From contig JAVLUZ010000273.1 in assembly GCA_036768485.1 (NCBI GenBank), positions 5,375,391-5,439,390 on the forward strand: a DNA stretch of 64,000 nucleotides, given 5' to 3'. The stretch is from Mermis nigrescens (Eukaryota > Nematoda > Enoplea > Mermithida > Mermithidae). Every line of letters begins with the position of its first letter. Within the stretch, counting starts at the first letter, position 1. Made by a program: the position numbers and the translations under genes. The notes under the pieces were generated by a model that was given only the letters and a program-made list of their open reading frames with translations, was not told where the DNA came from and did no database searches. Positions 5,316-23,086 of the stretch are shown piece after piece.

Positions 5316-5348
5316 AAGCGACGTGAGATATGCATTATATTGTGCATT

Positions 5349-7079
5349 ATGTACATGTTTTGTAAAAATGTGCATGCATATCAAATTTGTTCTCGCCATA
5401 AGTACGGTCATCCACTCGACGTACCAAAATCTGTTACGTGTAAAATACCGGAAATTGACGAAAAACCGACTGCTATAAAAGGAGGGGTTTACGTTCCGTT
5501 AAGCAAACCCGTAACATCAGTCGCATATAAGTGTACTATTCAGACGCGTATGACATGCACATTTATGAGCTTTTTCGGATCACATGGCATTACATTAGAC
5601 GAAACAAATTTCGAAAATATCTCAGTTTCGCAATGTAAACAAATAGTAAATGATATGCAGTATTTGAACATGAATTTGACAAAAATTTATCGTGGATTTT
5701 GGAGCACACAGGAAAAAGTACCTGTAAATTTCGAATGGTGCTGCACTAATCGTTGTAATAGGGTAACTAATGCTTTCGTCGAAGAAGGCAAGATCGCAAC
5801 GTATAATGGTCACATATTATTAAGCGATTTAGGCGACGTTAGCTCTTGTAATCCTAGCGCTGGAGAATGTTTACTAAATAATTATGTAATTATTTGGTCA
5901 AACACAAATTTACGTCGTACCTGTCCGTATGAATTAAAAGGCATGTATGATATAAAATTAGCGAATTCACATATATTAATCGAAGAACTACAGTCTGCAT
6001 TTACTGTTAAGAAACCTAAGTTCTTTAATACGAATTGTAGAGAGTTAATAGGATCACTTGAAACGCATCAAGGTGTCATTATACGTTTAGAAAAGCAAAA
6101 TACGCTAAAACGATCAGCATATGACATTGACGATTCATTTAATTTTTCGATTCCTAATTCGCAAGACCCTATAAACGCGAAATTAAATTTTCTCGAAACG
6201 AAAATTTTTCAGTTCGAAATCGAAAATTTTCGAAACATTTGGCACGAATTATGTCGTCAAGCGCAGCATCATTTAGATCTAATTTGGCAGCTACTAAAAT
6301 TAGATGCAACCTCAGGCGCTCGTGCATTATTACAGCGTACTGACATCACCGCAAGTTTTCGCGGAGATGCACTAGTTTTCTGGCCGTGTCAAAAAATTGA
6401 TAATTACACTACGCATAATGACTTCAGTGTAAACAGTACTTGTTATGCATATTTACCTATAACGTTTGATAACGTACTTATGTTCGTTATACCTGGCAGT
6501 TCTGATATTACTCCGTATAGTCCTACAGTACCATGTACAAGTAGACAACAAGCATTTTGGAAACGAGCAGATAATACATGGCATACATTATTAGGAGAAG
6601 CACACGTTAGCACAGTACCCGTACAAGTCTTATGGAGCGGTAATTATACATTGTACGATTTTGACACGCCCGAACTTTTTCATGGGCAATTAGAAAATCT
6701 TGTTTTGTTTAATTCGCATTCTCTTGAGCAGTATATGACACATTCGCGACAAGTGCAAAGTACCGTGAATCGACTCGTGAACTATGCAGCAAGTATGGCA
6801 CTTAATTCAGACAGCGTATACAACATGTTAGCTGGAGGCGGAAAAGCAATAAGTAACAGCTTTACCGGGGCAGGACAAGCCTTAGAAAGCACTTTTGAAG
6901 GCATACAGAAAAGCACAACAAACGGTATTAATAATTTGCTAAAAGGTCCATTGCAAATTACGATAAATATTGTTGTAGTTATTGTTACCATAGGTGCCTT
7001 AATCTTTGCATTCGTATATGCGCGACAGTATCTTGGCGTTTTTTGTCCTAAATCTGCCACACACCAAGCAGGCAATTAA
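5349..7079 (+). CDS. Envelope-like viral glycoprotein carried by the retroelement
   Basis: A 576-codon frame counted from the ATG at 5349. In-frame hydrophobic codons upstream, open back to 5316, extend the N-terminal hydrophobic stretch that ends in NVHA, as expected for a signal peptide, so the true start may lie in an upstream spliced exon. The ectodomain is cysteine-rich with several N-x-S/T sites and contains a short dibasic LKRS site near residue 255. A Gly/Ser-rich juxtamembrane region (about 490-535) precedes one hydrophobic transmembrane segment (about 537-558) and a short tail. This is the layout of a type I viral fusion glycoprotein. The Gly-rich juxtamembrane part and FFG-plus-Cys pattern suggest a class III-like glycoprotein such as those of chuvirus-like negative-strand viruses, but the family is not proven. 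The last about 60 nt overlap the start of pol. The frame is intact, unlike gag. Confidence 0.7.
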   Translation: MYMFCKNVHAYQICSRHKYGHPLDVPKSVTCKIPEIDEKPTAIKGGVYVPLSKPVTSVAYKCTIQTRMTCTFMSFFGSHGITLDETNFENISVSQCKQIVNDMQYLNMNLTKIYRGFWSTQEKVPVNFEWCCTNRCNRVTNAFVEEGKIATYNGHILLSDLGDVSSCNPSAGECLLNNYVIIWSNTNLRRTCPYELKGMYDIKLANSHILIEELQSAFTVKKPKFFNTNCRELIGSLETHQGVIIRLEKQNTLKRSAYDIDDSFNFSIPNSQDPINAKLNFLETKIFQFEIENFRNIWHELCRQAQHHLDLIWQLLKLDATSGARALLQRTDITASFRGDALVFWPCQKIDNYTTHNDFSVNSTCYAYLPITFDNVLMFVIPGSSDITPYSPTVPCTSRQQAFWKRADNTWHTLLGEAHVSTVPVQVLWSGNYTLYDFDTPELFHGQLENLVLFNSHSLEQYMTHSRQVQSTVNRLVNYAASMALNSDSVYNMLAGGGKAISNSFTGAGQALESTFEGIQKSTTNGINNLLKGPLQITINIVVVIVTIGALIFAFVYARQYLGVFCPKSATHQAGN

Positions 7080-10000
7080 TCCGTCGCTAGGAGAAGCATT
7101 ACTACAGTTAGCTAGCATTCAAAATAAGAATGAGCATATTCTACGTAGACACACGCATAGTAATACTATAGAAGCTGCAGTAGTCACTTCTGTTAAGCAT
7201 AGCCCTCATATAATGGTTAATATTAATGATCAGTTATCAGTTGAAGCTATGTTGGATTCAGGTGCATCATATACGCTTATAGATAAGAGCATCGTAGACA
7301 ACTTGTGCAATATTCAGATTTTGCCTACATCAGTTAAAGCAGTAGCCGCCAATCAGCTTCCTATTGAACTTTTAGGATGCATTTTTATCACTATAAAAGT
7401 AGCAGACATTGAAGAAACGATTGTCGCTCAAATACAAGAACGATGCGCCGCATCATTACTTTTGGGTTCAAATTTTCTGAATCGTTTCAAAGCATACACC
7501 GTAAATAATGAACACACGTATGTTATGTTTAAGAATCAGAAAATACCGTGTATTGGTTTAACTTTTGTTTCACCAAAAGACCGCGGAAGCATTTATTTAG
7601 ATGAGGCTTTATTTTTGCCATCACACACTATTACCGAATTTTCCGTACCTGTTTCAAAGCAGTATTCAAACGTAAAAAGTGTGCAATTCACACCGAATTC
7701 GGACATTTTTGATAAAACAAGAATTTGTTTTGCCTCATGCATTTCTCTGCCTACTGAAAATCGTATTTTAGTGTCTGCCTTGAACACACAAGAGCAAGCA
7801 GTTCTTTTGCATAAGCACATGCATGTCGGCAACATAAAAGCATTTAACGAAAACGCGGTAAACTCTACCTGTTCGGTAAATTCTGTACAGCAAAATCTCG
7901 CCGAAAATTTAAATAAAAACTCGAAATTTCTTTCATGGCTCTCGGAAAGAGTCAAGTTTGAAAATACGGATCTTTCAGAAACTGAGCAATTTTTGTTAAT
8001 TGAAATATTAGCAAAATATCCGTCTTTATATGCTCAGCATTCCGCTGATACTGGAAAAACTAGCCTTGTGGAGCATTCCATTAATACAGGCGATAGTTTA
8101 CCTATTAAACGTGCACAATTCCGTATTTCGCCGAAAGAACGCGAAATAAAACGAGCAGAAACAGACAAGCTTCAAAAACAAGACATAATTCAACGCAGTA
8201 ATTCTCCGTGGTGTACAAATACCGTTCTCGTTCGTAAAAAAGATGGAAATCACCGTCTTTGTATAGATTTTCGCGCATTAAATCAAGTGACCAAGAAAGA
8301 CAGTTATCCAATTCCGCGTATCGATCACATTTTAGACACGTTGAACGGCGCTAAATATTTCACAGTTCTAGATCAGGCAAACGCCTATCACACGATCCCA
8401 ATCACACAAACAGACCGCGAAAAAACAGCCTTTCATGCACCGCAAGGCTTGTACGAATTTAAATATCTACCGTTCGGCCTATGTAACGCGCCGGCGAGTT
8501 TCCAGCGTTTAATGGACTTGTTATTATCGGGCCTCCAATGGCAGACGTGTCTCGTTTATCTTGACGACATACTCATTTTCGCAAGGAATCACGCAGAAAT
8601 GTTATCACGCTTAGATGAAATCCTAGCACGTTTAACGCAAGCTGGAGTTAAGCTAAGACTCGAGAAATGTATATTTTCAAAAACAAGCGTAAAATATCTA
8701 GGACACGTTATTTCGATGCATGGCATTTCGCCAGATGCGGATAAAATTGATGCAATCGTGAAAATGCAAGCCCCAAAATCATTACGCGAGCTAAAATCTT
8801 TTCTCGGATTGCCATCGTATTATAGACGTTTCATAAGAGATTTTGCGAAAATTGCGCATCCTCTTACAAAATTACTTCGAAAATCCGATCCCTTTGTGTG
8901 GGGAACAGAACAAAATAATGCATTTGAAGATTTAAAGGCAGCAGTTTGTAATGCACCTGTCTTAAAACACCCGAATTTCGAAAAACCGTTTATTTTACAA
9001 ACAGACGCTTCGTACATAGGAATAGGCGCTGTGTTGACTCAGCTAGACGAGGGAGGAAAGGAACACCCTATCGCATTTGCGAGTAGGAATATTCGACCAG
9101 CGGAACGTAATTATGCGGTTACTGAACTTGAGACGCTCGCGGTTTACACGTTCGTGGATTATTTCAGACCGTACCTTTTTCAGCAAGCAGTAACAGTTTA
9201 TACTGATCATAGCGCTGTAAAATCGGTGCTGAACCGCGAAAATCCTTCTGGACGTATTGCACGTTGGGGTATCGCTTTATCAGTGTATAACTTAGACATA
9301 CAGCCACGCAAAGGAACCCAAAACAAAAACGCAGACGTCTTATCTAGATTTCCAGCAGAGCATAACACTACATGCAAAGCAGACATTGAAAATCTAGCAA
9401 CTCACCCCATAATCGCACACATATTCAGCCTCGAAGATGAAATATCTGATGAGCAAGAGCTCTTAAAGAATTTTGTCGAATTTCAAGCATCAGACGCATA
9501 CACGAAAAATATCCTTAATTCTTATGCAAATAAAAATGCGACTACCCTGACAGATTACGAAATAATTAAGGGCCTTTTATACAAAAAGGTGGGTCATCGG
9601 AAAAAGTTTGTTGTCCCAATGGCGATGAAAAACTTAATTTTGCAATCGTGTCATGATAGTAAATTTTCGGGCCATTTTGGCATTCGAAAAACGCTTAAAT
9701 TGGTGCAGCGTAAATATTTTTGGCCAAACTTAAAAGCAGATGTCATAACACACTGTCAGGCATGCCACACATGTCAGCTAAACAAACACAGCTTACATAA
9801 TATAAAAGCACGTTTAATACCGATTCCCGTGACGGGGTCATTCGATCGTGTAGGGATTGATTGTGTAGGGCCCCTACCCGAATCTAACGACGGAAATCGT
9901 TACATAATTGTTTTTGTCGATTACTTTACGAAGTATGTTGAGGCATTCGCCTCACCAAACATTACTGCGAAAACTGTCGCGAACAAATTTTTAACTGGCA

Positions 10001-10565
10001 TTGTTTGCAGACACGGGTCACCGCATACTGTACACTGTGACCGTGGCAGCGATTTTACGTCAGCGTTATTTTCCGAAGTAACGGCATTATGTAACACGCA
10101 TAAAATACATACGACTCCGTACCATCCAATGAGTAATGGTGAAGTCGAGCGTACCAATCAAACTTTGATAATTCGCTTGCGTATGTTACTCGATCATCTA
10201 CAGACAGATTGGGATCTCTTTTTACAATACGCCGTTTTTTCTGTAAATATACATGTCAATGAAAGCACAGGTTACGCGCCTTTTCAGTTATTGTACGGTA
10301 GGGAACCATCTCTGCCATCGGACGTATTGTTTTCCGCCATGAATGCAGAACGACCTGTCATTTCAGACTACGTAAAAGACCTAACTACGTACCTGCAACA
10401 TGCATATGTAAATGCTCATGATAATATTCAGAAAGCTCAAAAGCATTATGCACATACGTATAATCGCAATGCAAATGACCATTTATATAATGTCGGAGAC
10501 TACGTACTGAAAAAACAGTTTTATACTAAAATTGGGCAAACAGCCAAATTGGCACAACATTACTG
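7018..10565 (+). CDS. Ty3/Gypsy Pol: protease, RT, RNase H, integrase (cut by gap)
   Basis: The frame is open from about 7006; the first ATG is 7018, inside the tail codons of the glycoprotein gene in another frame. Domains in order: retropepsin with LDSGA (about 7255); reverse transcriptase with the catalytic YLDD box (about 8550-8565) and KYLGH downstream; RNase H with TDASYIGIG (about 9003); integrase with an HHCC zinc motif (about 9650-9780), then the DDE core (GIDCVG near 9856, HCDRGSDF near 10033, EVER near 10142). Domain order and motifs place it in Ty3/Gypsy (Metaviridae). The integrase C-terminus is lost in the N run, so anything the conceptual frame shows past the gap is an artefact. 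No internal stop is seen in about 3.5 kb, so this copy is young or under selection. It may normally be made by frameshift from an upstream frame. Confidence 0.9.
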
Positions 10566-10665
10566 NNNNNNNNNNNNNNNNNNNNNNNNNNNNNNNNNNN
10601 NNNNNNNNNNNNNNNNNNNNNNNNNNNNNNNNNNNNNNNNNNNNNNNNNNNNNNNNNNNNNNNNN
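10566..10665. other. Assembly gap (100 N)
   Basis: Exactly 100 N bases, a usual placeholder for a gap of unknown length. The 3' end of pol and the 3' LTR of the first retroelement are probably lost here. Confidence 1.
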
Positions 10666-11497
10666 CAGGGTTGGAAAAAACCAAAGTTTGAAAATTTCTG
10701 ATATTTTGGGTTTTTGGTTTTTTATGGTTTTTTATGGTTTTTTATGGTTTTTTAATGGTTTTTTAATGGTTTTTTATGGTTTTTAATGGTTAAATTTTGG
10801 TTTTTATATCTTAGTCGTGAGTATAAGTGTTTTTAAATGCTTGATTATGATTAAAAACCACTAAATTAAAGAACAGGAATGAGTTGCCTAACCAATTATT
10901 CAGGGAAAATAACAAAACTGAACAATTTCAAATTTATTCAGTAGAATAAACGGCAGCATAAAGAATCATTTTCTTCTTGTTCATTTTCATCGCTAGAAAT
11001 ATCTAAGGTCGTTCCTTCGAGTTGGTTGATAGGTATTGCTTTTCACAAATACTCATCAGGCACGTTGCTGTGGGGGGGGCGGGATTGGGGGGAAATTTTG
11101 AAAAACTGGAAAAATTTCAATTTTTTAATGCTATTTTTGGCCGTTTTTGGCCTTTTTGGCATTTGGTCCCCCCCAAAAATAAGTTGGTCCCCTCAAAATT
11201 GGTGGGTCAGCTACGTGCCTGGATCATTATTACATTACGATTATAATTACGTCTCTCTTACAAAAAAAGTTCAACCATGCCGTTTATTCCCTAAATAATT
11301 AGTCTACTCTATGCTAGAGTAAAGAGTACTATTTGCACATGTTTACAAATGATGAAATATGAATCTTGCGACATCGACTTAAAAAAACCAAAAAAACCAA
11401 CAAAAAAAACCAAAAACCAGGCCGATTTTCAAACCATAAAAAACCATAAAAAACCAAAAAAACCAAAAACCAAAAAACCATGTCCGGCCAACCCTGG
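10666..11497. mobile_element. hAT-like inverted-repeat element with ATGG-T arrays
   Basis: The ends CAGGGTTGG (10666) and CCAACCCTG (near 11488-11496) are inverted. The left end runs into TTTTTTATGG-type tandem repeats and the right end into their complement (CCATAAAAAA), so the termini can fold back. CAGGG-type termini are typical of hAT elements. The target duplication cannot be tested because the left flank is N. The centre (about 10800-11370) has no recognised coding sequence. Confidence 0.55.
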
Positions 11498-12204
11498 GGA
11501 GTGATAACGACCTAAGCAGGAGCGATACCGACCTAAACGGGAGTACTACCACCCACATAAATTTAAGCCTTAGCATAAAAAATCAAGAAGATTGAATAAA
11601 AATCAATAACTGTTGCGACTATATTTGCAGTGCACAACAGCAGTTACTATTCTGTATTAATGCCGATTTTTAATGGACATTTATGGTAAAACTTGAAGAA
11701 GAAAAAACAATAAAGGCAATAGAAAGGCCTGCGACATCAAATTTTATACAAAATATCTAAAGAAAAATGTCTGAGTGAATGAATTGAACAGCATATTGCT
11801 CAAAAACTAAGTAGTACTTGAAATCGCTTTTCCATGGACCGAAGCAAGTGGTTTTGGTCCAAAATGGCGTGAGAGGGTTGTATGCCTTCCGGAAGCTGTG
11901 GATAAAGGGATAGCCCTCTTATACTCCCCCAGTGCGCATGTGTGGAAATGGGCTCTAAATATAATTGAAAAATTCGTCGCTTGAGCCAAAAGTTTTTAGC
12001 GATTGAATTGAAAAAAGTTATCCCACTACAGTATTTGTGGCGTGAAGTTATTTAAATTTCAATTTCAACATGTTATCTGCTAAAGTTTCAGGGTACAGCA
12101 TTAATATTCCAACAACATTATTAAAGAAATTCGTTTTCCCTGGCCAAGTGCAGCACGCGCAAATATGGAAAAATTGTCAGCAAATTGGAACTTGAGCAGC
12201 CATA
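11498..12204. other. No gene seen
   Basis: AT-rich sequence. The first 70 bases carry a GACCTAAGCAGGAG-type motif also seen near 47050-47200 and 50580-50640, so part of it is dispersed repeat. Confidence 0.5.
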
Positions 12205-12429
12205 GTCTATTACATTTAACTTTGTGCTTTTCTTTTGAATTTAATCTGCATTAATCAGGCTACAAAGTAGTTTAAACATTTGATGCAGTGGATGCGGTTT
12301 TGGCATAAGCGAGCGTCCCACCATAGCTCGATTCATCACCTGTAGAATATTACAAAGTTTACTATTAGTTTTAACCACTTTTTAGGAAATTTAAGCCTTT
12401 CAAAAACCTCAAAATTAAATGAAACGGAC
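12205..12429. mobile_element. MITE, GTCTRTTWCATTTAA terminus family
   Basis: Inverted termini GTCTATTACATTTAA and TTAAATGAAACGGAC bound about 225 bp. The left copy is preceded by TA; the right flank reads TG, so the TA duplication is imperfect. Family members recur at 49286-49641 and 50357-50577. No coding sequence. Confidence 0.6.
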
Positions 12430-12716
12430 TGTCCTTGATCGCAGAAAATTTTTTTAAATGGCTTGTTTGTGACCACATTATTTTTTAAGGTCTGTCGTAT
12501 ATACATGCGGCCTACACTAGCGACAATGTTCAGCCGTCGCAATGAACGAGTATTTCAAATATGCACATGGTATAGAAGGTAAGGCTAGTTTGGTAAATGG
12601 ACATTATAGCTCGTTTATTCTCAGGAGGGGGTCTTCTCCACAGCCACACGTGATAACAGTGGTTTACTGCCTGCCGTCGAAATATCATATTCGTAAAACT
12701 TAAAGTGCCTATAAAG

Positions 12717-13070
12717 CCCGGTTCGTGAAGTAAAAATCGGCGATATCGCCGACATCGCCGACACTTTTTCCCGGTTCAGAAGTGCCCCGATTTTCCCGAT
12801 TTTTAGTCGGCGATATCGCCGACTTTCCCGATTTTTGTCGGCGATATCGCCGATTCTTACGACTTTCCCGATTTTGTCGGCGAATCGCCGACTTTCGTCC
12901 CGATTTTTAGTCGGCGATATCGCCGACTTTCCCGATTTTTATCGGCGATATCGCCGACTTTCCCGATTTTTGTCGGCGATGTCGCCGACTTTCCCGATTT
13001 TTGTCGGCGATGTCGCCGACTAAAATCGTAAGAATAGGAACCCATCCTATTTTTCTACGATATCGCCGAT
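12717..13070. repeat. Array of TCGGCGATATCGCCGA palindromes
   Basis: About ten copies of a 16-bp palindrome (TCGGCGATATCGCCGA or its ATGTC variant) are joined by CTTTCCCGATTTT spacers, giving a period near 36 bp in the second half. The left edge (AAGCCCGGTTCGTGAAGTAA) matches in layout the terminus of the foldback element at 1904, so this is a second copy or a half copy of that family. Confidence 0.8.
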
Positions 13071-13440
13071 TTTTGGTGCATTGAAGTATGCGCTAGGTAT
13101 GCTGTTGTCTACTTAAGCACGTAGCTGTTCATGTAGATCATCATAAAGTACATATAATATAGGTACCACCAATCTAGGTGCCTGACTACATAACAAATCC
13201 TATTGATTAACACATATTACGTACTTTTAGCTGCGAGTACGGAAAAACTATACTGCTTACTATCTTACGTCATGAATTTTAATTAGCTGAGATACTCAAC
13301 TGACTTTTCTGCACACATCTTGACACTTTGTGCTATTACATATTTGTATGTACGTACGTACCTACAAGTCCAATAGGGCCAAAATGCCAAAAATCGCATT
13401 AAACATTGAATTCCGAGGTCAATTGATTTTTAGGGGACTT
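13071..13440. other. No gene seen
   Basis: AT-rich intergenic sequence without recognised motifs, ending at a dispersed R1 repeat. Confidence 0.4.
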
Positions 13441-13444
13441 TCAG

Positions 13445-13735
13445 ATTCTGGGGGCCCAGAGCATACGTGGGCAGCACGAAAATTCTAGGGGAGTGTAAAA
13501 ATTTTTAAAAGGTCAAAAAATGGTCTTAAGAATGGTGGTAGGGCGAAAAAGCACCATTTTTCGATATTTCTCATCGAGCGCTATCCATTGGCATCAAAAA
13601 ATCGCGAAAAATGCTTAAAAGATTCGAAAATCGATTTCTAGGAGGTATTCTGGTTTTCATGTTGTATATTTTGCCTTCTGGGGGTGCATACATCCAAACC
13701 CCCACGCCCACGTGTGGCTCAGAGCCTCCAGACCA
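13445..13735 (+). repeat. Dispersed repeat R1, copy 1
   Basis: R1 is a family found repeatedly in this window. It starts near GTGGGCAGCACCGAAATTCT, passes a block like TCAAAAAATGGTCTTAAAAA, a block CACCATTTTTCGAC, a block GAGCACTATCCATTGGCATC, a block GAATTCTGGGGGTATT, and ends near CCCCCACGCCCACGTGTGG. This copy is full length in plus orientation. No protein is encoded; orientation is my choice. Confidence 0.8.
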
Positions 13736-13865
13736 TAGATGCACAGCATGGTCAATCTGGGGGGTCAGCCGGTACCTATAAGGTCGAAATTTTTCGGTTT
13801 TTAAGGCCAAAAACGACTGAAAAAGTGCTAGAAAAGTCAAGCGCCAATTCTACCACAATTCATGA

Positions 13866-14700
13866 TGTAGCAGGAGTGCTACTACACGGCTAAAAATGCC
13901 TACTTTGAAGTTTAACCCGTGACGTTGATGTTTCATTGTTTATCAATATTATTCATTACTTTGCGCGGTTGTGAGCAATAGCCCGAGTAGTCGATTAGTG
14001 CTGCGCACGCGAACCAGAGCGGAAGATCCGGGAAGCCGGTGCGGGTAAAATTTTGCTCACGTAACGGTCGGAGGCGGCGCCCCCGTTACAAATGGTGGTA
14101 TGAGTCGCCAGAGACACCGTTCTCTCGACGTTGCCTCAGCTTACAGCTCTCTCCTAGAGGGGCGGAGTGCAGCAGGAGTGCTACTACAGCGGCAAAAAAT
14201 GCCTACTGGGGGGTATTTTGACCTCTGGGGCGGGGTATGTTCATTGCTTCTCGGTGGGGTCCAATACTCCGCGCAGTAGCGCCCAGAGCCCATGTTTGGT
14301 CGATTAGTCCTACACACGCAGAGAATCAGAGCGGAAGATCCGGGAAACCGGTGCGGGTAAAATTTTGCTCACGCATGCTTGGTGGGAGGCCGGCGCCCCC
14401 GTTTACATGTTGGGGGTCCCAGAGTACGTTCTCTGGAGTTGTCTGCGCTTACGCTTTCTCCTAGAATGGGAGGAGTGTAGCAGGAGTGCTACTACATGGC
14501 TAAAAATGCCTACTTTGAAGTTTAACCCGTGACGTTGATGTTTCATTGTTTATCAATATTTATTCAATACTTTGCGCGGTTGTGAGCAAGAGCCCGAGTA
14601 GTCGATTAGTACTACACACGCGAATCAGAGCGGAAGATCCGGGAAACCGGTGCGGGTAAAATTTTGCTCACGTAACGGTGGGAGGCGGCGCCCCGTTACA
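13866..14700 (+). mobile_element. Tandem TRIM-like array: LTR-int-LTR-int-LTR
   Basis: Three direct repeats of about 225-240 bp begin TGTAGCAGGAGTGCTACTACA or a close variant and end in CCGTTACA: 13866-14090, 14168-14407 and 14476-14700. Between them are 77- and 68-bp internal segments that begin with a TGG-containing, primer-binding-like sequence and end in a purine-rich tract (AGAGGGGCGGAG; AATGGGAGGAG). This is the layout of terminal-repeat retrotransposons in miniature, with LTRs shared through recombination. There is no coding capacity. LTR2 is the most divergent, with a different middle part. Flanking 5-mers CATGA and GTTGT do not match, so the right junction with pol is not a simple insertion. 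Confidence 0.75.
14168..14407 (+). repeat. Middle LTR of the TRIM-like array
   Basis: It begins TGCAGCAGGAGTGCTACTACA and ends GTTTACA. The shared 3' half carries CGGAAGATCCGGGAAACCGG and GGGTAAAATTTTGCTCACG. Its 5' half differs from the outer LTRs, with a GGGGTATTTTG segment, so it is an older or recombinant LTR. Confidence 0.7.
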
Positions 14701-17631
14701 GTTGTCGATTATCGACGGTTAAATGACATTACTAAAACGCAAGTTTATCCTCTTCCACAATTAGACGATTATTTTGACACCTTAGGCAATGCCGCATATT
14801 TTAGCACACTCGATTTAAAATCTGGATACTGGCAAATTCCACTCGATAATAAATCTCGCGAAAAAACAGCATTTATATGTCCTGTTGGTCATTACGAATT
14901 TGAAGTTTTACCTTTTGGTTTAAAAAATGCGCCTGCAGATTTCCAAAGGCTAATGGAGCTCGTGCTCGCAGGTCTAAATTGGAAATCTTGTCTCGTTTAC
15001 ATCGATGACATAATTATTTTTTCACGTACTTTCGAAGAACATTTAAAAGATCTTGAAAATGTCTTCATTGCTCTTAAAAAGGCAAACTTACGTGTAAAGC
15101 CTGATAAATGCCATCTTGCGCATGCAGAGGTAAAATTTCTTGGCCACAGCATAAGTGCAATGGGCATCGCTCCTGATATGTCCAAAGTCGCAGATTTAAT
15201 CTCGTTTCCCGTGCCAAAAACCGTTAAATCCTTGCAGAAATTCCTTGGCTTAGTCCAATGGTTTAAGAAATTCGTTAAAGATCTTGCTAAAATCGCTAAA
15301 CCGTTATTCCATCTTCTTCGTAAAGATGTCGAATTTTGCTGGAAGGCTGAACACCAAACCGCTTTTGAGCTTCTGAAGAAAGCATTTACGTCCCCACCTA
15401 TTTTGCAATTACCAAAATTCGATGATGAGCACCAATTTATTTTAACAACTGACGCAAGTAACTATGCGTTAGGTGCTATTTTGACGCAAAAACATTTACC
15501 ATCCAAAAATCGTTTTATTCTTAGCTACGCTAGTCGCGTGCTAAATTCTGCTGAATGTAACTATGCTACTTCAGAAAAAGAAGCGTTAGCGGTAGTGTGG
15601 GCCATCAAGCATTATCGACATTATCTTTACGGTAAAAAATTTATTGTCGAAACTGATCATCAAGCATTAACCTGGTTAGTAAACGTGAAAGACCCATCGA
15701 GTCGTTTACGCCGTTGGGGTCTCAAATTACAGGAATACGAATATGATATCGTCTATGTTCCTGGTGCATATAACTGCGCAGCTGATCTTCTTTCACGACA
15801 TCCTAAATATGATCATGCAGAACGCAAATATAAAGTAGAGCGCAAAAATATCGTTAACATCGCAAATTTAGAATCGGAAGATTCTGAGTCAGATGATGAA
15901 TCGGTTCCACCTGACCGATCGCGCGATAATGCGCCTACTGCACCAATTAATCATCCAAATGCGCAAAATAATAATTCTACTGCGCAAACCGATCCTACAA
16001 ATTCGAAACCACCTACATTTCGCGAACGCTTGTTACTTACCGATGCCGAAAAAGCTGAAATGCTAACACCTGCGCGTTTACTCGCTGAGCAACGTGCAGA
16101 TGATGAATTGCATAAAATTCGCATCGCATTGAATGACTTAACAACGAAAAAATATCGTGACGAATTTTTTCTCGTAAACGATGTACTTTTTTGTCGTTTC
16201 CAACCTAAGCGTTCACCAACTGTCGTTCATCAAATAGTCATACCCAAATCTTTGCGTCGTTTTATATTAACGGAATTTCATGACTCTATTTTCGGAGCTC
16301 ATTTTTCATCGCGCAAAATCTTGCCCGCCATACAAATGCGTTATTGGTGGCCGCGCATGGAAAATGATGTGATCGCGTGGTGTCGGAATTGTGATGTGTG
16401 CTTACAACGTAAGGTCGCATTAAATTCCACATCCGTTCCGTTGCAACCAATCGAAGTATCCGCGCCCTTTGAACTCATTGCGTGCGATTGCTTGCATATG
16501 CCGCGATCCCCCTCCGGAAATGACCAAATTGTAGTTTTTATGGATTATTTTACAAAATACGTGGAAGCTTTTGCTGTTTCTGACATAAAAGCAACAACAA
16601 TTGCAAATTTATTACTAAGAGAAATTATACCACGTTATGGAGTTCCCAAGAAATTTTTGACAGATCAGGGGTCAAATTTTACATCTACCCTCATTTCGGA
16701 AGTTTGCAAACTATTAAACGTTCAGAAAATTTTTACAACCCCATATCACCCCCAGTGTGATGGGTTGGTGGAACGTTATAATCGCACCTTGATTGATTGT
16801 TTGTCTAAGCTGAGTGCGCGTTCCCAGTATGATTGGGAGCAATTTCTACCTTTCGCATTATTTGCATACCGCGCGACTCCACAATCATCGACTAATATAT
16901 CTCCTTTTGAAATGCTTTATGGTCGTGAACCAGCATTTCCTCTTGACACTTTACTTATAAATGACTTCGTAATAAATCCGAATTTACCATCTGTTGCGGA
17001 AAAATATGTCATTGATTTAAAGCTGACTTTACAAGATCTGCATGAAATCGCGTCTCAAAATTTAACTCAAGCGCGTAAGCAGCAAAAATCGCAATATGAC
17101 AAGTCCGTAACGCACACAAATTTTAATCTCTCGGATATAGTCTATCTTAATAATACCTCAGTCATTCAACCAGAAATCGGTAAACTATCACCCAAGCGTG
17201 TTGGTCCATACCGAATTATTGACTTACCTACGCCTGAAACTGCGAAAATCGCATATGTCTATAATCCTCTGATCACTCATCTCGTCCACAGGAATAGACT
17301 TTTGCCTGAACCTAAACTACCTTATTCTGATTTAATTGTGGAAAAACACGCGTATGTCCCTGGCGATTTTGTGTTGGTAAAATTACCACATCGCCCTCTT
17401 GCCCCGGCAGTTGTCATAAGTTTTGAGGATTTACCGGGCAGGGAACAAAAAGCTAAGGACTGCGCGCCTGTACGTTTATTAAATGGTTCTAAAACAGCAC
17501 ATGCCGTACCATTATCTAATGTTTTTCCTTTTGCAGACCCATGGCTGCACAAGGTACCCCAAGCAAGGAGGCATTGCTGGAGGCAGCTGGTCGCCGATGC
17601 AAATTTGAGGGGCGTGATCCCGCGTCCCTAG
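14701..17631 (+). pseudogene. 5'-truncated Ty3/Gypsy Pol: RT, RNase H, integrase
   Basis: About 975 codons, open to a stop at 17629-17631. The frame nominally begins inside the preceding LTR, but homology starts abruptly at VVDYRRLND, so protease and the first RT motifs are missing. Seen in order: YIDD catalytic box (about 14998-15009), FLGH (about 15140), RNase H TDASNYALGA (about 15450), integrase HHCC (about 16280-16410), DDE core (CDCLHMP near 16485, TDQGSNF near 16660, DGLVER near 16757), and a GPYRI box (about 17200) typical of Gypsy integrase C-termini. It is a different lineage from the pol at 7.0 kb. Its 3' end overlaps the exonuclease ORF by 91 nt. The frame is intact, so truncation is probably recent or an assembly join. 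Confidence 0.88.
17520..17536 (+). promoter_or_regulatory. Putative splice acceptor before the exonuclease ORF
   Basis: A pyrimidine run followed by CAG (TTTTTCCTTTTGCAG) ends 4 nt before the ATG at 17541. It matches the consensus 3' splice site. In Gypsy-type elements the ORF after pol is often expressed from a spliced RNA, so this site would give the exonuclease mRNA. The donor would be upstream in the missing 5' part. Not proven. Confidence 0.55.
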
Positions 17632-19301
17632 ATGAGTTTCGTTCGGCATTGACCAGTATGGCTTTGGAGCGGGGCTTGGTTGTACCAGACCCGCTGCCCC
17701 AAAATGATAATAGTCGTGTTGGCGGTCTAGAATCACTTACCGCAAAATGGATAAAGCATAAAGCAGCACATAAAATCACAAATCATAAAAAGCGTATTAA
17801 CGACCAACAACTCTGGTGGGAGAATAGGCTTGGTAGATGTCCTTTGGTAACCCCTCGCGTACCAAAGAACAGACTTCTACCCACCGTCATAATCTCCAAT
17901 GACCAGAAGTCGTTTGGCGCCATTTTGGCGTTAATTCAGCCATCAAATATGACAAATGGCACTTTATTCTTAGGCTATGACTCTGAATTTGTGAATGACA
18001 GAAAAGGCAGGCATTATAAGACCTGGGACTTGCGTTTTCAGCAACTATGTCCCACTTACCAGGACCTCCATGGCCCATTCGTACGCTACGTCCAAGTTGC
18101 GAGCGCGAACGGCCATGTGTTCTGTTGGGATCTAGCGAAGTTCCCGCAACCTCCGTTCGGGCTTCACCAGTTGCTCGAAACGCGCTTACCTAACGTGTAT
18201 ATGGTTTGTTATGACCCGACGCAAGATCGACTTGCGTATTTCCATGTTTACGGGCCAACTTTCGAGGAAATTTTGGCAATTCCGGATGCAGAAATTCGCA
18301 ATAAACTGCACTGGAAAGATCCATTCATTGCAAATTTCATTGATATTCAGCCATTGGCGAGAGCGTTTACGCGTCGTTTACGCATTAAAGCGCAGTCGCA
18401 CTCATTAAAGCGCTTGGCCGAATTCTTTTTTGACATGTATATTGATCCGAACGCGCCTGATAACTTCGGACAGGCGTGGAGCTTACCCTTGACTCGGGAC
18501 ATGCAGCATTATTTAGCGATGGACGCCCTCATAACTATCGATGTTTTTATACTGATAGAAGGGTGCACGCAAGATAATCGCATTACTGACGATAGAAAAC
18601 CCATGTCGGTTTCGTTTACAGGCGATGAACTGTATATTAAGGCTAGCGGCCCTAAAGCTAGAGTGCGCATACCGTTGTCGACTAGTAAGCCACCACAGGG
18701 ACAGTCGACCAGCGCAGCTGCTGACGCTGAAGTTGATTCGAATGGCGAAGAGTTAATCATAGCTGAGGACTTTTATTGCCCAGCTCCGCAACCGCCAGCG
18801 GCCATAGCTGCGGCCACTACCGTCGCTTCTGTAACGGATGCGATGGCTCACGTTAACGTTTTCGAAAATCCAATGTTCTATGCTCAGGAATCGCAGACCG
18901 TTGCCGACCCAGTTTCGGGCCCGGTCAATGCGCCTGACACGGAACCTAAGTCAAAACCAACTAGCTCGAGTACTCCAGCTTCTGTGTTTTTGTCGCAAAC
19001 CGATATTCCCTACGATTCGCCTATGGTTGATGTAGAACCATCGATCTCCACTGAAGATGACGATTTATCTCCCAAACGTTTAGTGATGGCGTTATCTGAC
19101 GCCGAGGCGGAAAGACAAGCTAACTTGTCGCCACCGCGTGTAACACGCGCGGCAATGGCTCGAAAAGGGGCTGTTACCGTTTCGCAACCGATTGTCTCAC
19201 AATCGCTTGCGGCGGACCAACAAGCGCCCTTGGGCATCAGTTCGCTCGCACCTTTACCGACTTCGCAGCCGGGTTGGGTAGAGCGTGATTCTGAGCCCTG
19301 A
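17541..19301 (+). CDS. DEDDy-type 3'-5' exonuclease-like ORF of an LTR retroelement
   Basis: 586 codons from the ATG at 17541. Residues about 140-345 show the RNase D/WRN-type fold signature: ExoI with D147-x-E149 (GYDSEF), ExoII D268 (FIDIQ), then SLKRLAEFF and ExoIII with Y324-x3-D328 (HYLAMDAL). All catalytic positions of a DEDDy exonuclease appear present, so the predicted activity is metal-dependent 3'-5' trimming of RNA or single-stranded DNA. The N-terminal 100 residues are basic; the C-terminal 230 are Ser/Pro/Ala-rich and probably disordered. It starts within the integrase frame, just after a splice-acceptor-like site, and ends 7 nt before the next ORF's ATG. Such ORFs in LTR elements are known from bdelloid rotifers. 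Its role in the element is unknown. Confidence 0.82.
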   Translation: MAAQGTPSKEALLEAAGRRCKFEGRDPASLDEFRSALTSMALERGLVVPDPLPQNDNSRVGGLESLTAKWIKHKAAHKITNHKKRINDQQLWWENRLGRCPLVTPRVPKNRLLPTVIISNDQKSFGAILALIQPSNMTNGTLFLGYDSEFVNDRKGRHYKTWDLRFQQLCPTYQDLHGPFVRYVQVASANGHVFCWDLAKFPQPPFGLHQLLETRLPNVYMVCYDPTQDRLAYFHVYGPTFEEILAIPDAEIRNKLHWKDPFIANFIDIQPLARAFTRRLRIKAQSHSLKRLAEFFFDMYIDPNAPDNFGQAWSLPLTRDMQHYLAMDALITIDVFILIEGCTQDNRITDDRKPMSVSFTGDELYIKASGPKARVRIPLSTSKPPQGQSTSAAADAEVDSNGEELIIAEDFYCPAPQPPAAIAAATTVASVTDAMAHVNVFENPMFYAQESQTVADPVSGPVNAPDTEPKSKPTSSSTPASVFLSQTDIPYDSPMVDVEPSISTEDDDLSPKRLVMALSDAEAERQANLSPPRVTRAAMARKGAVTVSQPIVSQSLAADQQAPLGISSLAPLPTSQPGWVERDSEP

Positions 19302-19308
19302 CGTGATC

Positions 19309-21693
19309 ATGACTGAAATTATTGGTTTTCCGCCGCAACCACAACGTACACTAGCTGCACACGAAGTACCACAAGTAGCATTATACACGCAAGTCACGTC
19401 TCAGTCCGTGCCACAAGGTACGTCGGCACCGGATACTCGTTTTACGGCTTCTATGGCCATGACGGGTGTGTCTAGTACCGTGGCAAATATTCAACCACAG
19501 GTTACGCAAAGCCAATCATCAAATATGGAAGTCGCAATACCTGCGCACATTCAAGCTATTCGCGAACGTATTTCCGCGAACGAAAGCGCTAGAGTCCAAA
19601 ATCGCTCGCGCTACGTACAGCATTTTTTCACCATGATGGAAAATCTGACGCGCGAACCACCGTGCACTATCGCGCCAGTCGTCTTGCACGAGTTACGTTC
19701 TTATTTGGGTGAGGTCGCAGGATCGCGTTTGTACGATCAGTTGGTCGAAGCTGCTCAAGTGTACTTCGATCGAGTGTACGCAATCCATTTGCAGTACGCG
19801 ACTTCGACTGACTCGCCCTCGCGTCCTTTAGTGTGGCCTACAATCGCACAGCCTGTGGCTGGTGTCGATTGTGAGCCCGCACCTTGGTTTATTAGCAAAT
19901 TGAGCGTGTTTAACCGATTATTTTATCCAGACCAATACTTCGTGCGCATACGGTTCTTTATCACAACCGGAATGATGTTGTACGAGGTTCCGCTCGAGTA
20001 TTTGGTCGTACACCCACACCTTGACGCACCGAGCGAGGTGATTGACGGCGTTGCACATCAGATTTGCCCGGACTTATATCCGCACAGGATGTCTCCAGCG
20101 CCAGATCACCTAGCGCCCATTTTAATATCGGCGCGTCAGATGGTTGACATTTTTGATACTTTCCGAGAATTTCAGTCATTATATGATTCGGAGTATCGAC
20201 ACATGACGATCTTTTCTTCAATAGACGTCATGCGCGCTACAGCGCTTTTGGAATTCTTGGATAGGAAATTCCACTTCTTTGCGTACGCCTACGGTAATCC
20301 CGGAATAGGTTGGCGCATGGTGGAGCAATTACGTCGCATGCTGCGCGTAGCATTCCTTGGTGAATCTTACACACCTTCGCCAAGTGAGGCTTTCCCGGAA
20401 TTCCCGGACTTAACGGCACGAATTGAAAGTCCTCATGTTTTACACAACATGATTTGGCAAATTCGGTTAGCAACCGACCCGCCGCTTGAAGTTCCGGCTC
20501 AATTCGATCGTTTTCGAGGTCGTCAAAAATCTGTGTTTTACCTCAAACATCGAATTCAAGGCGAATTAGAGAAAATTCGTAGAGAAAGGCGACAGGCATC
20601 CTCGCAGGACCCAAGCGGATCCGCAGCAAGCCTTGATATGCCAGAAGTCGATCTTTCCTTGGAGGCACAAATTGAAATGCGTAGAACACGCATGACGATC
20701 GAGCGACGCGATTGTGAGAATTTGGCGACGGAAATGCCACGGCGTGCGACGAAGTTACGCGCCGCCGGTTCTCTTGCTGAGTCTTCAGAAGTTTGTCATA
20801 TGTCAGAAGACGAACACAAGGCCAAATTGAATCGTTTTTACGATACTAAATCCGAGCACACTTTGCGTCGGTTAAAGAATTTGGAAAAACAACGAGTCAG
20901 AAGACTCGTTCAAGCTGAAGTTGCAGCTAAATTGAAAGCGCGTTTAGGCCAAAGAGGATCGAGGCGGCAAGACCCGCAGTCATCCCGGCAACGCTATGCA
21001 CAAACGCATCACCGTTCACAATCGCAAGCACAACCGCAAACACAAGTAAAACCACATGTACAGCAATACACAAGACCGCAGACCCAACCGCGGCAACAGC
21101 AGCAATTTACGGAATCGCGTGAGCGTTCCGAGGCGTATTCTCAGGCCGATGCTGGTCATCTGTCGCGCTCGCGACAGCAGCAGCCTTATGAATACCGCCG
21201 TCCGCCACAGTCGAACCGCGGAACTCATCGGGGCCGGTCACAATCCCGTCAACGTCAACAATGGGACCAGTCGTATCGCTCACCGTTGGAACAAAGTCAA
21301 CCAGCCACCGGGGGTTATCAGCCACAACCTCGACCCGGTCCACTTTTGCCAAAACCGTGGCCTGTTACGCAACAACAACAGCGTCCACGCGAACCTTCAC
21401 GTGAACAAACTTACGGTTTTACGCCGGAGCAATTATTCACTCCGCCGCCACCTATACCGCGTCGTTACGCGGACGACTACGAGGACGACGACGATTTTGA
21501 GGACGATGATCGACCAGTCGATCCACATCGACGCTTACGCCAACATATGTACGGGCGTAGGCAATCGCCATATCAGTATCGTGACCGTTCGAATACGCGT
21601 CGCGAACCGGAATCGGATCAAGAATATTTTCAACGTCAAAGACGTCGCGGAAAACCGCATGGCTCGAAGGCCAATTATCAGGATCGTTATTAA
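19309..21693 (+). CDS. Third ORF of the retroelement, unknown family (794 aa)
   Basis: I chose the ATG at 19309, 7 nt after the exonuclease stop; an upstream GTG at 19285 is in frame but less likely. Residues about 80-390 look globular, with many aromatic and aliphatic residues and few charges. About 395-560 is charged and helical with Arg/Glu-rich stretches suggesting a coiled coil. The last 230 residues are very rich in Gln, Arg, Pro and Ser with an Asp/Glu patch (DDYEDDDDFEDDD), as expected for a disordered nucleic-acid-binding tail. There are no zinc knuckles, no transmembrane segment and no motif I know. It could be a relocated Gag-like protein or a new accessory protein. The long open frame with high CpG and GC, unlike neighbouring DNA, argues that it is a real gene. 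Confidence 0.7.
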   Translation: MTEIIGFPPQPQRTLAAHEVPQVALYTQVTSQSVPQGTSAPDTRFTASMAMTGVSSTVANIQPQVTQSQSSNMEVAIPAHIQAIRERISANESARVQNRSRYVQHFFTMMENLTREPPCTIAPVVLHELRSYLGEVAGSRLYDQLVEAAQVYFDRVYAIHLQYATSTDSPSRPLVWPTIAQPVAGVDCEPAPWFISKLSVFNRLFYPDQYFVRIRFFITTGMMLYEVPLEYLVVHPHLDAPSEVIDGVAHQICPDLYPHRMSPAPDHLAPILISARQMVDIFDTFREFQSLYDSEYRHMTIFSSIDVMRATALLEFLDRKFHFFAYAYGNPGIGWRMVEQLRRMLRVAFLGESYTPSPSEAFPEFPDLTARIESPHVLHNMIWQIRLATDPPLEVPAQFDRFRGRQKSVFYLKHRIQGELEKIRRERRQASSQDPSGSAASLDMPEVDLSLEAQIEMRRTRMTIERRDCENLATEMPRRATKLRAAGSLAESSEVCHMSEDEHKAKLNRFYDTKSEHTLRRLKNLEKQRVRRLVQAEVAAKLKARLGQRGSRRQDPQSSRQRYAQTHHRSQSQAQPQTQVKPHVQQYTRPQTQPRQQQQFTESRERSEAYSQADAGHLSRSRQQQPYEYRRPPQSNRGTHRGRSQSRQRQQWDQSYRSPLEQSQPATGGYQPQPRPGPLLPKPWPVTQQQQRPREPSREQTYGFTPEQLFTPPPPIPRRYADDYEDDDDFEDDDRPVDPHRRLRQHMYGRRQSPYQYRDRSNTRREPESDQEYFQRQRRRGKPHGSKANYQDRY

Positions 21694-22481
21694 TTCATCA
21701 AGTTCGACGTACTGAACTTTTTGGAACTCTGCGACGGCGTCGAATTCGACCAGCAGCTTTTCGTCAATTTTTTCGTTTTTCGTCCTGATGTGGATTCCAG
21801 GACTTCACGTATCGTTTATTTCCTGTGTATTTTTTCTCTTGTCATTTTTTCTTGCTGTAAAAATTTTTCTTTGACGGTGCTCGTATTTTTCCTCGTTATC
21901 TCGCATAATTTGCCATTTTTCTCGTTTTTATCGTTACCTCGTGTTTTAACTCGTCAGTGACTTTAATTTTGCTCAGCATAATTTTGCCTTATCATTCCGT
22001 ATTTTAATTTGTCTTTTGCTCAATTAGCGGTGTTACTATTATGGTACCTTAACTCTTTAACGGACAAGGGGTTAATTTACACCCAATCTACAAATTTTTT
22101 CAATTCAAAATTTTTCTCATTACCCGGGGACTGAAGGAGGCTGATGGGACAGCGGATGAACTGTCCAAGACCGGAGTTCATCATTACTCGGGCAACAATA
22201 TAGTTATCCCTAGCGCCATTGAGAGTGTTGCTCGAGAGTTTTCCTGAGTGCGAACGAGGTCATGCGTTGACCGTTACCGGTTATCGATATTTGTTATTTT
22301 TTTGTTCTTTTTATTTTCGTTTTTCACGTTTGCTCAGGATGAGGCGTTGCGGACGCCGGAGTTGAGGCGTTGCGAACGCCAGAGAGCCGAGTTGTAGAGC
22401 GTCGCCGACGCTAGTGTTGATGGTGTACCCCCGAAAAAATTCTCCACTACGTTTCAAATTTTTTTTCTATACGTGGGGGAG
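21694..22481 (+). other. 3' untranslated region and polypurine tract of the element
   Basis: T-rich non-coding sequence follows the last ORF. Near 22330-22410 are repeats of GAGGCGTTGCGGACGCC. The segment ends in the purine tract GTGGGGGAG (22473-22481), immediately followed by TGTAACTGCG, as expected for the plus-strand primer next to a 3' LTR. Confidence 0.65.
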
Positions 22482-23045
22482 TGTAACTGCGAGAGTTACA
22501 CGGTAGGCGAACTCTGCCTTAGCAGTTCGCGATAGCCATAACATAGCCAATACTAGTAGCTATCTATGATAGTGCACTGTGGGCTATGCCTTCGGTCTTC
22601 CCATTATTTCCCCAAATTTTCAATAATAAAAAACATTTAGATACTTGTCCGGTAGCATAGAGTTAAGTGTATGATAATAGTAATTGTTTCATGCATACCG
22701 CTTGTGTAATCGAGAACTTTCGATCTGAGATAAAAGCTTATCAGTATTACGTTAATTTGATCTTTGTTTAATTTACTGTAATGGTCCTTGAGGCCAGTGT
22801 ACGTAACGTTGTAGTTTAGTCTGGCTTTTGGTTTTTTCGTTGGCCGGTTGTTCGACTGTATAATCTGTACATTATCGTTTTTCTTTTGCGTATTTTGTTG
22901 TCCGGCTATAGGCCGTGAATTCTACGTCGAATTAAAATAGAGAAAACCTACCCAGTGGTTTTTGGTTATACCGAGGGTTAGGTCGGCCACCATCCCTACG
23001 TCGAGGATTTCCACCCATCTAGTGGACTGATAGGTAAATTTCGTA
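22482..23045 (+). repeat. 3' LTR of the exonuclease-bearing element (end uncertain)
   Basis: It begins with the imperfect palindrome TGTAACTGCGAGAGTTACA directly after the polypurine tract. Its first about 180 bp are repeated in inverted orientation at 24421-24594. The right end is not defined because the 5' LTR is absent; I placed it before the foldback element. An AATAAAA near 22625 could act in RNA 3'-end formation. Confidence 0.6.
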
Positions 23046-23086
23046 TGATAGTTTATTTTATTCGGAAATCATAATTTATTTCTCAA

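What the first reader, a model, noticed from the sequence alone, without database searches (positions are those of the whole stretch)
14701..21693. Gypsy-type element carrying a DEDDy exonuclease and a further unknown ORF
Seen directly: RT-RNase H-integrase, then an ORF with complete D-x-E / D / Y-x3-D exonuclease motifs, then a 794-aa ORF, then a polypurine tract and LTR start. Established: DEDDy exonuclease ORFs have been reported in LTR and Penelope-like elements of bdelloid rotifers. Inference: the exonuclease could trim cDNA or RNA ends during replication or counter host small-RNA defence, and the third ORF may be its partner.
Basis: partly seen in the sequence, partly recalled or inferred. 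Interest (0 to 1): 0.82.

Follow-up and report, generated by a model that had tools for sequence, protein, structure and literature searches.

The report
Retroelement-borne exonuclease under strong selection
A large, many-copy LTR retroelement in this genome carries, after its replication genes, a protein with a DEDDy-type exonuclease head that has been kept about as intact as the replication enzymes, which suggests that the element needs it.

Summary
The finding is real but its anatomy needs correcting. The window holds a 5'-truncated copy of a Ty3/Gypsy-type LTR element about 14.4 kb long: LTRs of about 1,050 bp, 4-bp target duplications, one gag-pol frame. The exonuclease ORF and the '794-aa third ORF' are one frame (up to 1,390 codons) in other copies; they are split only in the window copy and three identical duplicates (4 of 74 scored copies). 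The exonuclease domain (residues 127-345) has pN/pS 0.043 among nine copies; RT-integrase has 0.060 among 18 sequences. D147, E149 and D229 are intact in 20 of 20 copies read, Y324 and D328 in 10 of 10. The domain alone scores below Pfam's cut-off, but a second DEDDy ORF in the same genome, well above the cut-off, is its homologue (BLASTP 3e-8; 0 of 3,000 shuffles as good) and has 125 matches here. A splice-acceptor-like site lies 4 nt before the ORF2 start, in the position of a retroviral env. Most likely it is an element-encoded 3'-5' exonuclease with an RNA-binding-like arm, used on the element's own replication intermediates. DEDDy ORFs in LTR elements are known from bdelloid rotifers; the measured constraint and the fused arm are the new points.

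The parts
14701..17631 (+). pol remnant: RT (5' truncated), RNase H, integrase, GPY/F-like and PWWP-like C-terminus (both below their cut-offs); stop at 17629-17631
   Evidence: pN/pS 0.060 among 18 distinct sequences for 14701-17530
17516..17536 (+). 3' splice-acceptor-like site: CTAAT, pyrimidine tract, CAG, ending 4 nt before the ORF2 ATG
   Evidence: sequence; 1 of 4 such sites on the element's + strand; the 44 nt around it identical in 18 of 20 copies, one base different in 2; 1 of 34 columns variable in 19 indel-free copies against 25 of 302 just upstream, i.e. not clearly more than pol coding explains. Splicing itself not observed
17541..19301 (+). ORF2 (586 aa from ATG): N-terminal region, DEDDy exonuclease domain, low-complexity linker; overlaps the pol end by 91 nt
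   Evidence: 74 scored copies, all 74 matched over the full 588-residue query without an internal stop, in a capped list that favours intact copies
17919..18575 (+). DEDDy 3'-5' exonuclease domain, residues 127-345 (D147, E149, D229, Y324, D328)
   Evidence: Pfam PF01612 E 0.0024-0.0074 for domain pieces, 0.026 for the whole ORF, all below the 23.6-bit cut-off; homologous to L125, which is above it; pN/pS 0.043, bootstrap 95% 0.013-0.077
19309..21693 (+). ORF3 (794 aa from ATG): in other copies the in-frame C-terminal part of the ORF2 protein; a Q/R/S-rich, partly basic tail; no Pfam, NCBIfam or meaningful PHROG or PDB match
   Evidence: pN/pS 0.186 among 11 distinct sequences
21694..22481 (+). 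3' untranslated region ending in a polypurine tract (GTGGGGGAG, 22473-22481)
   Evidence: the same tract precedes the 3' LTR in 10 of 10 copies read there
22482..23050 (+). start of the 3' LTR (TGTAACTGCGAGAG...); LTRs are about 1,050 bp in full copies; the end was not fixed in this copy

Best explanation
SHOWN: a multicopy Ty3/Gypsy-type LTR retroelement of about 14.4 kb with gag-pol in one frame and, where retroviruses have env, one further frame of up to 1,390 codons whose head is a DEDDy (RNase D/WRN/NrnC-like) exonuclease domain; head and arm are under purifying selection. INFERRED, more likely than not: the protein is made from a spliced subgenomic RNA that joins the 5' leader to the acceptor at 17535-17536. 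INFERRED, less certain: the enzyme digests 3' ends of RNA or single-stranded DNA, is held to the element's own RNA/Gag complex by its long, partly basic arm, and trims or corrects 3' ends during reverse transcription (mispaired or overhanging cDNA ends, or RNA/primer ends). Reason for preferring a role on the element's own intermediates: constraint among copies within one genome is as strong as on RT-integrase, whereas a freely diffusing service that all copies share would be expected to relax. The window copy itself is truncated and split and is not a working copy. My odds: element-encoded DEDDy protein in env position about 0.9; spliced expression about 0.6 (lowered from 0.7 in my draft, because the acceptor's conservation is no stronger than coding explains); a role on the element's own nucleic acids, given the rest, about 0.5.
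For: Ten copies with both LTRs read: LTR-LTR identity 92.7-99.8%; by my reading of the printed flanks a perfect 4-bp duplication in 7 of 10. Protease (Asp_protease_2 1e-11), a Retrotrans_gag match (0.0013, below cut-off) and a CX2CX4HX4C knuckle before RT. Longer joint frame of ORF2+ORF3 in 70 of 74 matches; seen directly in 10 of 10 downstream pieces, which I had picked for long frames, and in L006-L009. pN/pS: exonuclease 0.043, RT-IN 0.060, N-terminus 0.189, linker 0.277, ORF3 part 0.186; the exonuclease DNA in shifted frames 1.99 and 4.86. Catalytic residues 20 of 20 and 10 of 10. Homology to a canonical DEDDy ORF. Acceptor-like site in place and a donor-like CAC|GTAAGG 144-145 nt before the gag ATG in 7 of the 8 copies in which that ATG was found, of 10 examined. 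No hydrophobic stretch like that of an envelope (best 19-residue mean 1.69 and 1.31, against 2.71 in the window's env-like ORF).
Against: ORF2's exonuclease scores below Pfam's curated cut-off (12.3-18.1 bits against 23.6), and none of the 41 PF01612 matches in the genome is an ORF2 copy (compared by eye). The two single-sequence models were poor (pLDDT 37 and 38) and Foldseek with the second found nothing; hhalign against E. coli RNase D found nothing. No RNA data, so splicing and expression are unobserved; the leader holds 1-4 ATGs before the donor-like site in 8 of 8 copies. The copies used for selection tests were picked for long open frames. 4 of 20 pol pieces have an in-frame stop. 19 of 48 pol matches had no ORF2 partner in the capped ORF2 list; whether they lack ORF2 was not resolved. 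The step from constraint to a role on the element's own molecules is an argument, not a test.
Confidence: 0.55

Rival explanations
1. Counter-defence: the exonuclease destroys or shortens host small RNAs (piRNA/siRNA) or their precursors, which protects the element; the arm binds RNA or a host factor.
For: Animal small-RNA pathways use DEDD proteins (Maelstrom, EXD1, mut-7, as PMC5408684 notes). Many DEDDy ORFs of differing identity coexist in this genome (125 matches), as could be expected of an arms race.
Against: A diffusible protein would serve all copies, yet constraint among copies is as strong as on pol. The catalytic part is slow-evolving, while an arms-race protein would be expected to evolve fast. 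No small-RNA data.
Confidence: 0.25
2. A dispensable captured ORF without function (passenger).
For: In bdelloids the extra ORFs that were tested inside one genome (env-like and GDSL-like, not the DEDDy ones) varied nearly neutrally (PMC5408684); the window copy is itself split and truncated; many of the 70 longer frames end short of 1,390 codons.
Against: pN/pS 0.043 (0.013-0.077) on the exonuclease and 0.186 on the ORF3 part; none of the 74 scored copies has an internal stop in ORF2, though the list favours intact copies.
Confidence: 0.05
3. An env-equivalent: the protein replaces an envelope and helps entry or exit.
For: Position after pol, overlap with the pol end, acceptor-like site just before the ATG.
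Against: No membrane-spanning stretch by hydropathy; few Cys (7 and 5); conserved nuclease residues.
Confidence: 0.05
4. A host exonuclease gene or pseudogene lies next to the element by chance.
For: The genome has at least one multi-exon DEDDy gene-like locus (C728:217089-221285).
Against: 29 of 48 pol matches are followed by ORF2 at the identical offset; ORF2 lies between pol and the 3' LTR in 10 of 10 copies with both LTRs; no intron.
Confidence: 0.01

Closest known systems
DEDDy-ORF LTR retrotransposons of bdelloid rotifers (Juno1/2, Vesta2/5; Rodriguez, Kenefick and Arkhipova 2017, PMC5408684; text parts 1-3 of 5 read)
   Same: LTR element with an extra DEDDy ORF after integrase; ORF3s there typically expressed from spliced messages; several element families in one genome share DEDDy-type ORFs
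   Different: No dUTPase domain found between protease and RT here; gag and pol in one frame; the exonuclease is the head of a protein of up to 1,390 codons; [quoted passage not shown] the classical D-E-D-D-Y set is kept, whereas it reports DEDD changed to DEED
Terminons / Athena Penelope-like elements (PMC6431247, passages read)
   Same: Retroelements with accessory DEDDy exonucleases
   Different: Not LTR elements; different RT class and telomeric habit
WRN exonuclease, NanoRNase C, RNase D (DEDDy exonucleases)
   Same: The relative L125 matches WRN (2fbt, E 0.0012) and NrnC (7mpr, 0.0087); ORF2 is homologous to L125
   Different: ORF2 itself has no meaningful match to a solved structure and, in other copies, carries an arm of about 800 residues
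Insect errantiviruses (Gypsy with env; recalled)
   Same: An extra ORF after pol expressed by splicing, 4-bp target duplications
   Different: The extra ORF here is a nuclease without membrane segments, not an envelope

Membership tests
Ty3/Gypsy-type LTR retroelement | LTRs with TG...CA ends and short target duplication | tested here: met
   About 1,050-bp LTRs; 4-bp duplications in 7 of 10 copies by my reading
Ty3/Gypsy-type LTR retroelement | Gag and PR-RT-RNase H-IN in this order | tested here: met
   Retrotrans_gag 0.0013 is below its cut-off, PR, RT, RNase H and IN domains are above theirs
Ty3/Gypsy-type LTR retroelement | Placement in an RT tree | not tested
   No reference set of named elements was at hand
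Ty3/Gypsy-type LTR retroelement | tRNA primer binding site after the 5' LTR | tested here: inconclusive
   TTGGAYGTTCCC follows the LTR in several copies; the matching tRNA was not looked up
DEDDy exonuclease superfamily | D-x-E, D, Y-x3-D in order | tested here: met
   D and Y-x3-D pair with those of L125
DEDDy exonuclease superfamily | Pfam PF01612 above its curated cut-off for ORF2 itself | tested here: not met
   12.3-18.1 bits against 23.6. Membership of the superfamily is therefore argued through the homologue L125 (42 bits), not through Pfam directly
DEDDy exonuclease superfamily | Significant similarity to an accepted member | tested here: met
   L125: BLASTP 3e-8 over 180 aa; Smith-Waterman 97 against at most 61 in 3,000 shuffles. 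Not met for E. coli RNase D alone
DEDDy exonuclease superfamily | RNase H-like fold | tested here: inconclusive
   Models at pLDDT 37 and 38
DEDDy exonuclease superfamily | 3'-5' exonuclease activity | not testable with these tools
   Needs biochemistry
Bdelloid Juno/Vesta elements | dUTPase between PR and RT | tested here: not met
   No dUTPase match in 1,310 aa from gag to RT start of one copy
Bdelloid Juno/Vesta elements | DEDDy ORF downstream of pol | tested here: met
Errantivirus-like (env-bearing) | Membrane-anchored envelope after pol | tested here: not met
   Hydropathy

The most novel reading that the evidence does not exclude
The exonuclease is a proofreading or end-repair subunit for the element's reverse transcription, a retroelement counterpart of the exonucleases that large RNA viruses keep to hold long genomes (recalled), which would fit an element of 14.4 kb; and the many related DEDDy ORFs in this genome form a shared pool from which retroelements are equipped.
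Probability: 0.12. Interest if true: 0.9.

Novelty: new variant of a known kind. Interest (0 to 1): 0.6.

Why it matters
Accessory DEDDy ORFs in LTR elements have been in print since 2017, but their usefulness to the element stayed unclear: the bdelloid study found near-neutral variation in the two other ORF types that it tested and did not test the DEDDy ones. Here the domain is as constrained as RT-integrase among many copies in one genome. That makes the question of what a retroelement needs an exonuclease for directly testable, with a clear domain, clear catalytic residues and a predicted spliced message. The fused arm of about 800 residues and the large set of related DEDDy ORFs suggest a wider, little-described class of accessory proteins.

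Tried and rejected
Host locus beside an element: rejected. Separate third ORF: rejected. ORF3 as a displaced Gag: rejected, since full copies have an ordinary Gag-like region with a zinc knuckle before protease. Ribosomal frameshift from pol into ORF2: I saw no slippery heptamer near 17520-17541 by eye, no formal scan. ORF2 or ORF3 in the large protein collection: three searches, none found anything. Viral contig scans with pol, ORF2 and ORF3 and a prokaryote contig scan with ORF2: no relative. PHROGs and NCBIfam: nothing useful. Structure route: two poor models; Foldseek with the second uninformative. hhalign with RNase D and two control proteins: no signal in any. A local RNase D HMM test failed for technical reasons and was dropped. 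A composition table of sub-regions was cut out of register for two pieces and is not used. In one search the count of variable columns upstream of the acceptor was spoiled by one copy with an indel; one search repeats it with the 19 indel-free copies. The four-sequence alignment misplaces RNase D and motif I of L125 and is not used.

Changed on checking the draft: the polypurine tract's place and its count; the bias in the 10-of-10 count; the weak evidence of acceptor conservation; the bdelloid neutrality result, which did not cover DEDDy ORFs; the range of Pfam scores. Odds of splicing were lowered from 0.7 to 0.6 and interest from 0.62 to 0.6 for that.
Full report
WHAT IS IN THE WINDOW. From 14701 an open frame encodes RT (missing its first part), RNase H and integrase and ends at 17631. 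ORF2 starts at ATG 17541, overlaps the pol end by 91 nt in another frame, and stops at 19301. ORF3 starts at ATG 19309 and stops at 21693. A 3' untranslated region and the polypurine tract GTGGGGGAG (22473-22481) lead to the LTR start at 22482. An LTR piece in inverse orientation (24594 down to 24389, 85% identity) starts within 2 nt of the same base. Left of 14701 lies a unit (14476-14700) also found at 13866-14090 (95%) and, at 81-84%, at 63555-63788: the copy is 5'-truncated. In 1,000 simulations of the ORF2-ORF3 stretch the longest open frame was 322 codons.

THE GENOME. The window lies in an unnamed assembly of 524 Mb in 860 contigs, which could be searched only now and then. ORF2 found 74 scored matches (2,682 first-look candidates), all over the full query, 90-100% identical, none with an internal stop.

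THE WHOLE ELEMENT. For 20 copies I read the 9 kb upstream of ORF2, and for 10 of them a further 5.4 kb that reaches the 3' LTR, as separate pieces. These copies were picked for long open frames, except L029, which is a duplicate of the window copy. Full copies have LTRs of about 1,050 bp, 92.7-99.8% identical within a copy. By my reading of the printed flanks 7 of 10 have a perfect 4-bp target duplication. From LTR to LTR a copy spans about 14.4 kb (my arithmetic). Gag and pol form one frame: 6 of 48 pol matches show the same open frame of 2,275 codons. Gag has a Retrotrans_gag match (0.0013, below cut-off) and a CX2CX4HX4C knuckle; protease is clear (1e-11); no dUTPase was found.

ONE PROTEIN, NOT TWO. 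Among the 74 matches, 70 have an open frame longer than 593 codons (646 to 1,421) and 17 have exactly 1,390; in 20 of 20 upstream pieces the frame begins at the same place, so the extra length is downstream in those. In 10 of 10 downstream pieces (picked for long frames) and in L006-L009 the ORF2 frame runs straight into ORF3. The four with 593 are the window copy and three others identical to it over 4,764 bp. For one of them the contig stretch L029 stays identical to the window over 7,769 bp and across the truncation point, starting at the window's N gap. So this is one inserted copy, duplicated in the genome or in the assembly, not a variant that spreads. Intact copies exist.

SELECTION. 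Pooled pN/pS: RT to integrase 0.060 (18 distinct sequences); first 900 nt of ORF2 0.112 (19); ORF2 tail 0.257 (11); ORF3 part 0.186 (11). In nine complete ORF2 copies: residues 1-126 0.189, exonuclease 127-345 0.043 (bootstrap over codons 0.013-0.077), 346-586 0.277; the same exonuclease DNA read in the two shifted frames gives 1.99 and 4.86. D147, E149 and D229 are intact in 20 of 20 upstream pieces and the Y324/D328 motif in 10 of 10 downstream pieces; not all of these pieces are distinct sequences. In-frame stops in the window's register: 4 of 20 in the pol piece, none in ORF2 or ORF3. The choice of copies biases stop counts, but would not by itself produce such low ratios between lineages.

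IS IT A DEDDy EXONUCLEASE? Pfam DNA_pol_A_exo1 is the only family that answers, at 0.0024-0.0074 for domain pieces, 0.026 for the whole ORF and 0.15 for a downstream piece, always below its cut-off and over the part around Y-x3-D. Structure prediction without relatives failed, and hhalign to E. coli RNase D gave nothing. The decisive step was to search the genome with the Pfam model: 41 matches from 90 scored candidates, among them a gene-like locus in three pieces (C728), one partial match (C147) and 37 others, 33 of them without an internal stop, all above the cut-off; by eye none is an ORF2 copy. One of the 37, L125, was read: Pfam 1.1e-10, WRN exonuclease 0.0012 and NanoRNase C 0.0087 in the PDB. 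It aligns to ORF2 at 26% over 180 aa, BLASTP 3e-8; the alignment score of 97 compares with at most 61 in 3,000 shuffles, and pieces of pol and ORF3 score 27-38. The alignment pairs D229 and Y-x3-D; motif I (YDSEF and IDCEF) lies outside it, somewhat upstream in both. I therefore take ORF2 to be a divergent DEDDy exonuclease, by homology rather than by Pfam score.

A LARGER SET. L125 found 125 matches (725 first-look candidates, 123 scored) at 26-100% identity, with clusters near 51-57% and 26-36%. Many are stop-free single frames of about 280-550 codons, several in many near-identical copies; many others are decayed. Three copies on C51 stand 7.2 kb apart in tandem. None of the contig neighbourhoods that I compared by eye coincides with the gag-pol matches. 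L125 has a pyrimidine-rich tract and TAG directly before its ATG. That these ORFs sit in retroelements is likely, but I could not read their flanks.

LINKAGE. A search by pol alone gave 48 matches; 29 have an ORF2 match at exactly the same 6-nt offset, and 19 have none in the capped ORF2 list. This rules out a chance neighbour. It does not show that every copy carries ORF2.

EXPRESSION. An acceptor-like site (CTAAT, pyrimidine tract, CAG) ends 4 nt before the ORF2 ATG. Four such sites exist on the element's + strand in 7.8 kb, about the density of the whole window; one falling so close to this ATG by chance has odds of roughly one in a hundred (my estimate). The 44 nt around it are identical in 18 of 20 copies and one base differs in two; 1 of 34 columns varies in 19 indel-free copies, against 25 of 302 just upstream, so conservation is not clearly beyond what pol coding explains. 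A donor-like CAC|GTAAGG lies 144-145 nt before the gag ATG in 7 of the 8 copies in which that ATG was found, of 10 examined. The leader holds 1-4 ATGs before it in those 8, a point against efficient use. No RNA was available.

MECHANISM. Best supported: an accessory 3'-5' exonuclease made from a spliced message, with a Q/R/S-rich, partly basic arm that probably binds RNA or Gag, acting on 3' ends during the element's own replication. The argument for this over counter-defence is the strength of constraint among copies in one genome. The bdelloid authors list RNA 3'-end processing, a part in post-transcriptional silencing and an env-like role as options; [quoted passage not shown]

LITERATURE. 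Seven full-text searches for DEDDy, RNase D-like or other exonuclease ORFs, or PWWP integrases, in LTR elements brought up the bdelloid work as the only direct precedent that I could see; the library lacks most subscription journals. PMC6338049 (passages) names a DnaQ-like exonuclease domain as a known accessory of LTR elements, citing the bdelloid paper together with two others: one (PMC5348765, listing only) shows no word beginning 'exonuclease' in the listing, the other (Novikova 2008) was not seen. Passages only were read of PMC6431247, PMC6338049, PMC7998251 and PMC3391268; the outline and abstract of PMC12440569; all others as listings.

VERDICT. A real, constrained accessory exonuclease of an LTR retroelement; a new variant of a known kind.

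Noticed in passing
window 5316-10701 (+): An env-like ORF matching the Monjiviricetes fusion glycoprotein (PF24664, 4.3e-13, with a C-terminal hydrophobic stretch) lies directly upstream of, and overlaps by 77 nt, a second Gypsy-type PR-RT-RNase H-IN frame: the order env then pol is unusual.
   Followed up: no
window 17239-17628 (+): The pol C-terminus after the GPY/F-like part has a PWWP-like stretch (0.0017, below the cut-off), a possible chromatin-reading tail of the integrase; one paper search showed no precedent in its listing.
   Followed up: partly
G000:C728:217089-221285: The best PF01612 match in the genome is split over three pieces like exons (profile 29-101, 93-145, 140-172): probably a host DEDDy gene.
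   Followed up: no
G000:C51:1310064-1325006; C59:6784026-6792043; C137:1100270-1108284: DEDDy ORF matches repeat at 7.2-7.5 kb spacing on one strand, as if in tandem or LTR-sharing units.
   Followed up: no
L013; G000:C474:166779-184757: A gag-RT segment only 59% identical to that of L027 sits between LTR pieces of the family, upstream of its ordinary pol and ORF2: mosaic or tandem elements. A search with this segment gave 59 matches at 66-100% identity.
   Followed up: partly
window 10666-18434: The sequence after the window's N gap is identical over 7.8 kb to a stretch of another contig (L029), and 4.8 kb of it also to two further places (L003, L004): recent segmental duplication or assembly duplicates.
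   Followed up: partly
window 54648-59033 and 60094-62213: Two satellite arrays with periods of about 546 and 120 bp.
   Followed up: no
window 12787-13032: Short tandem array built on TCGGCGATATCGCCGA, a palindromic unit.
   Followed up: no
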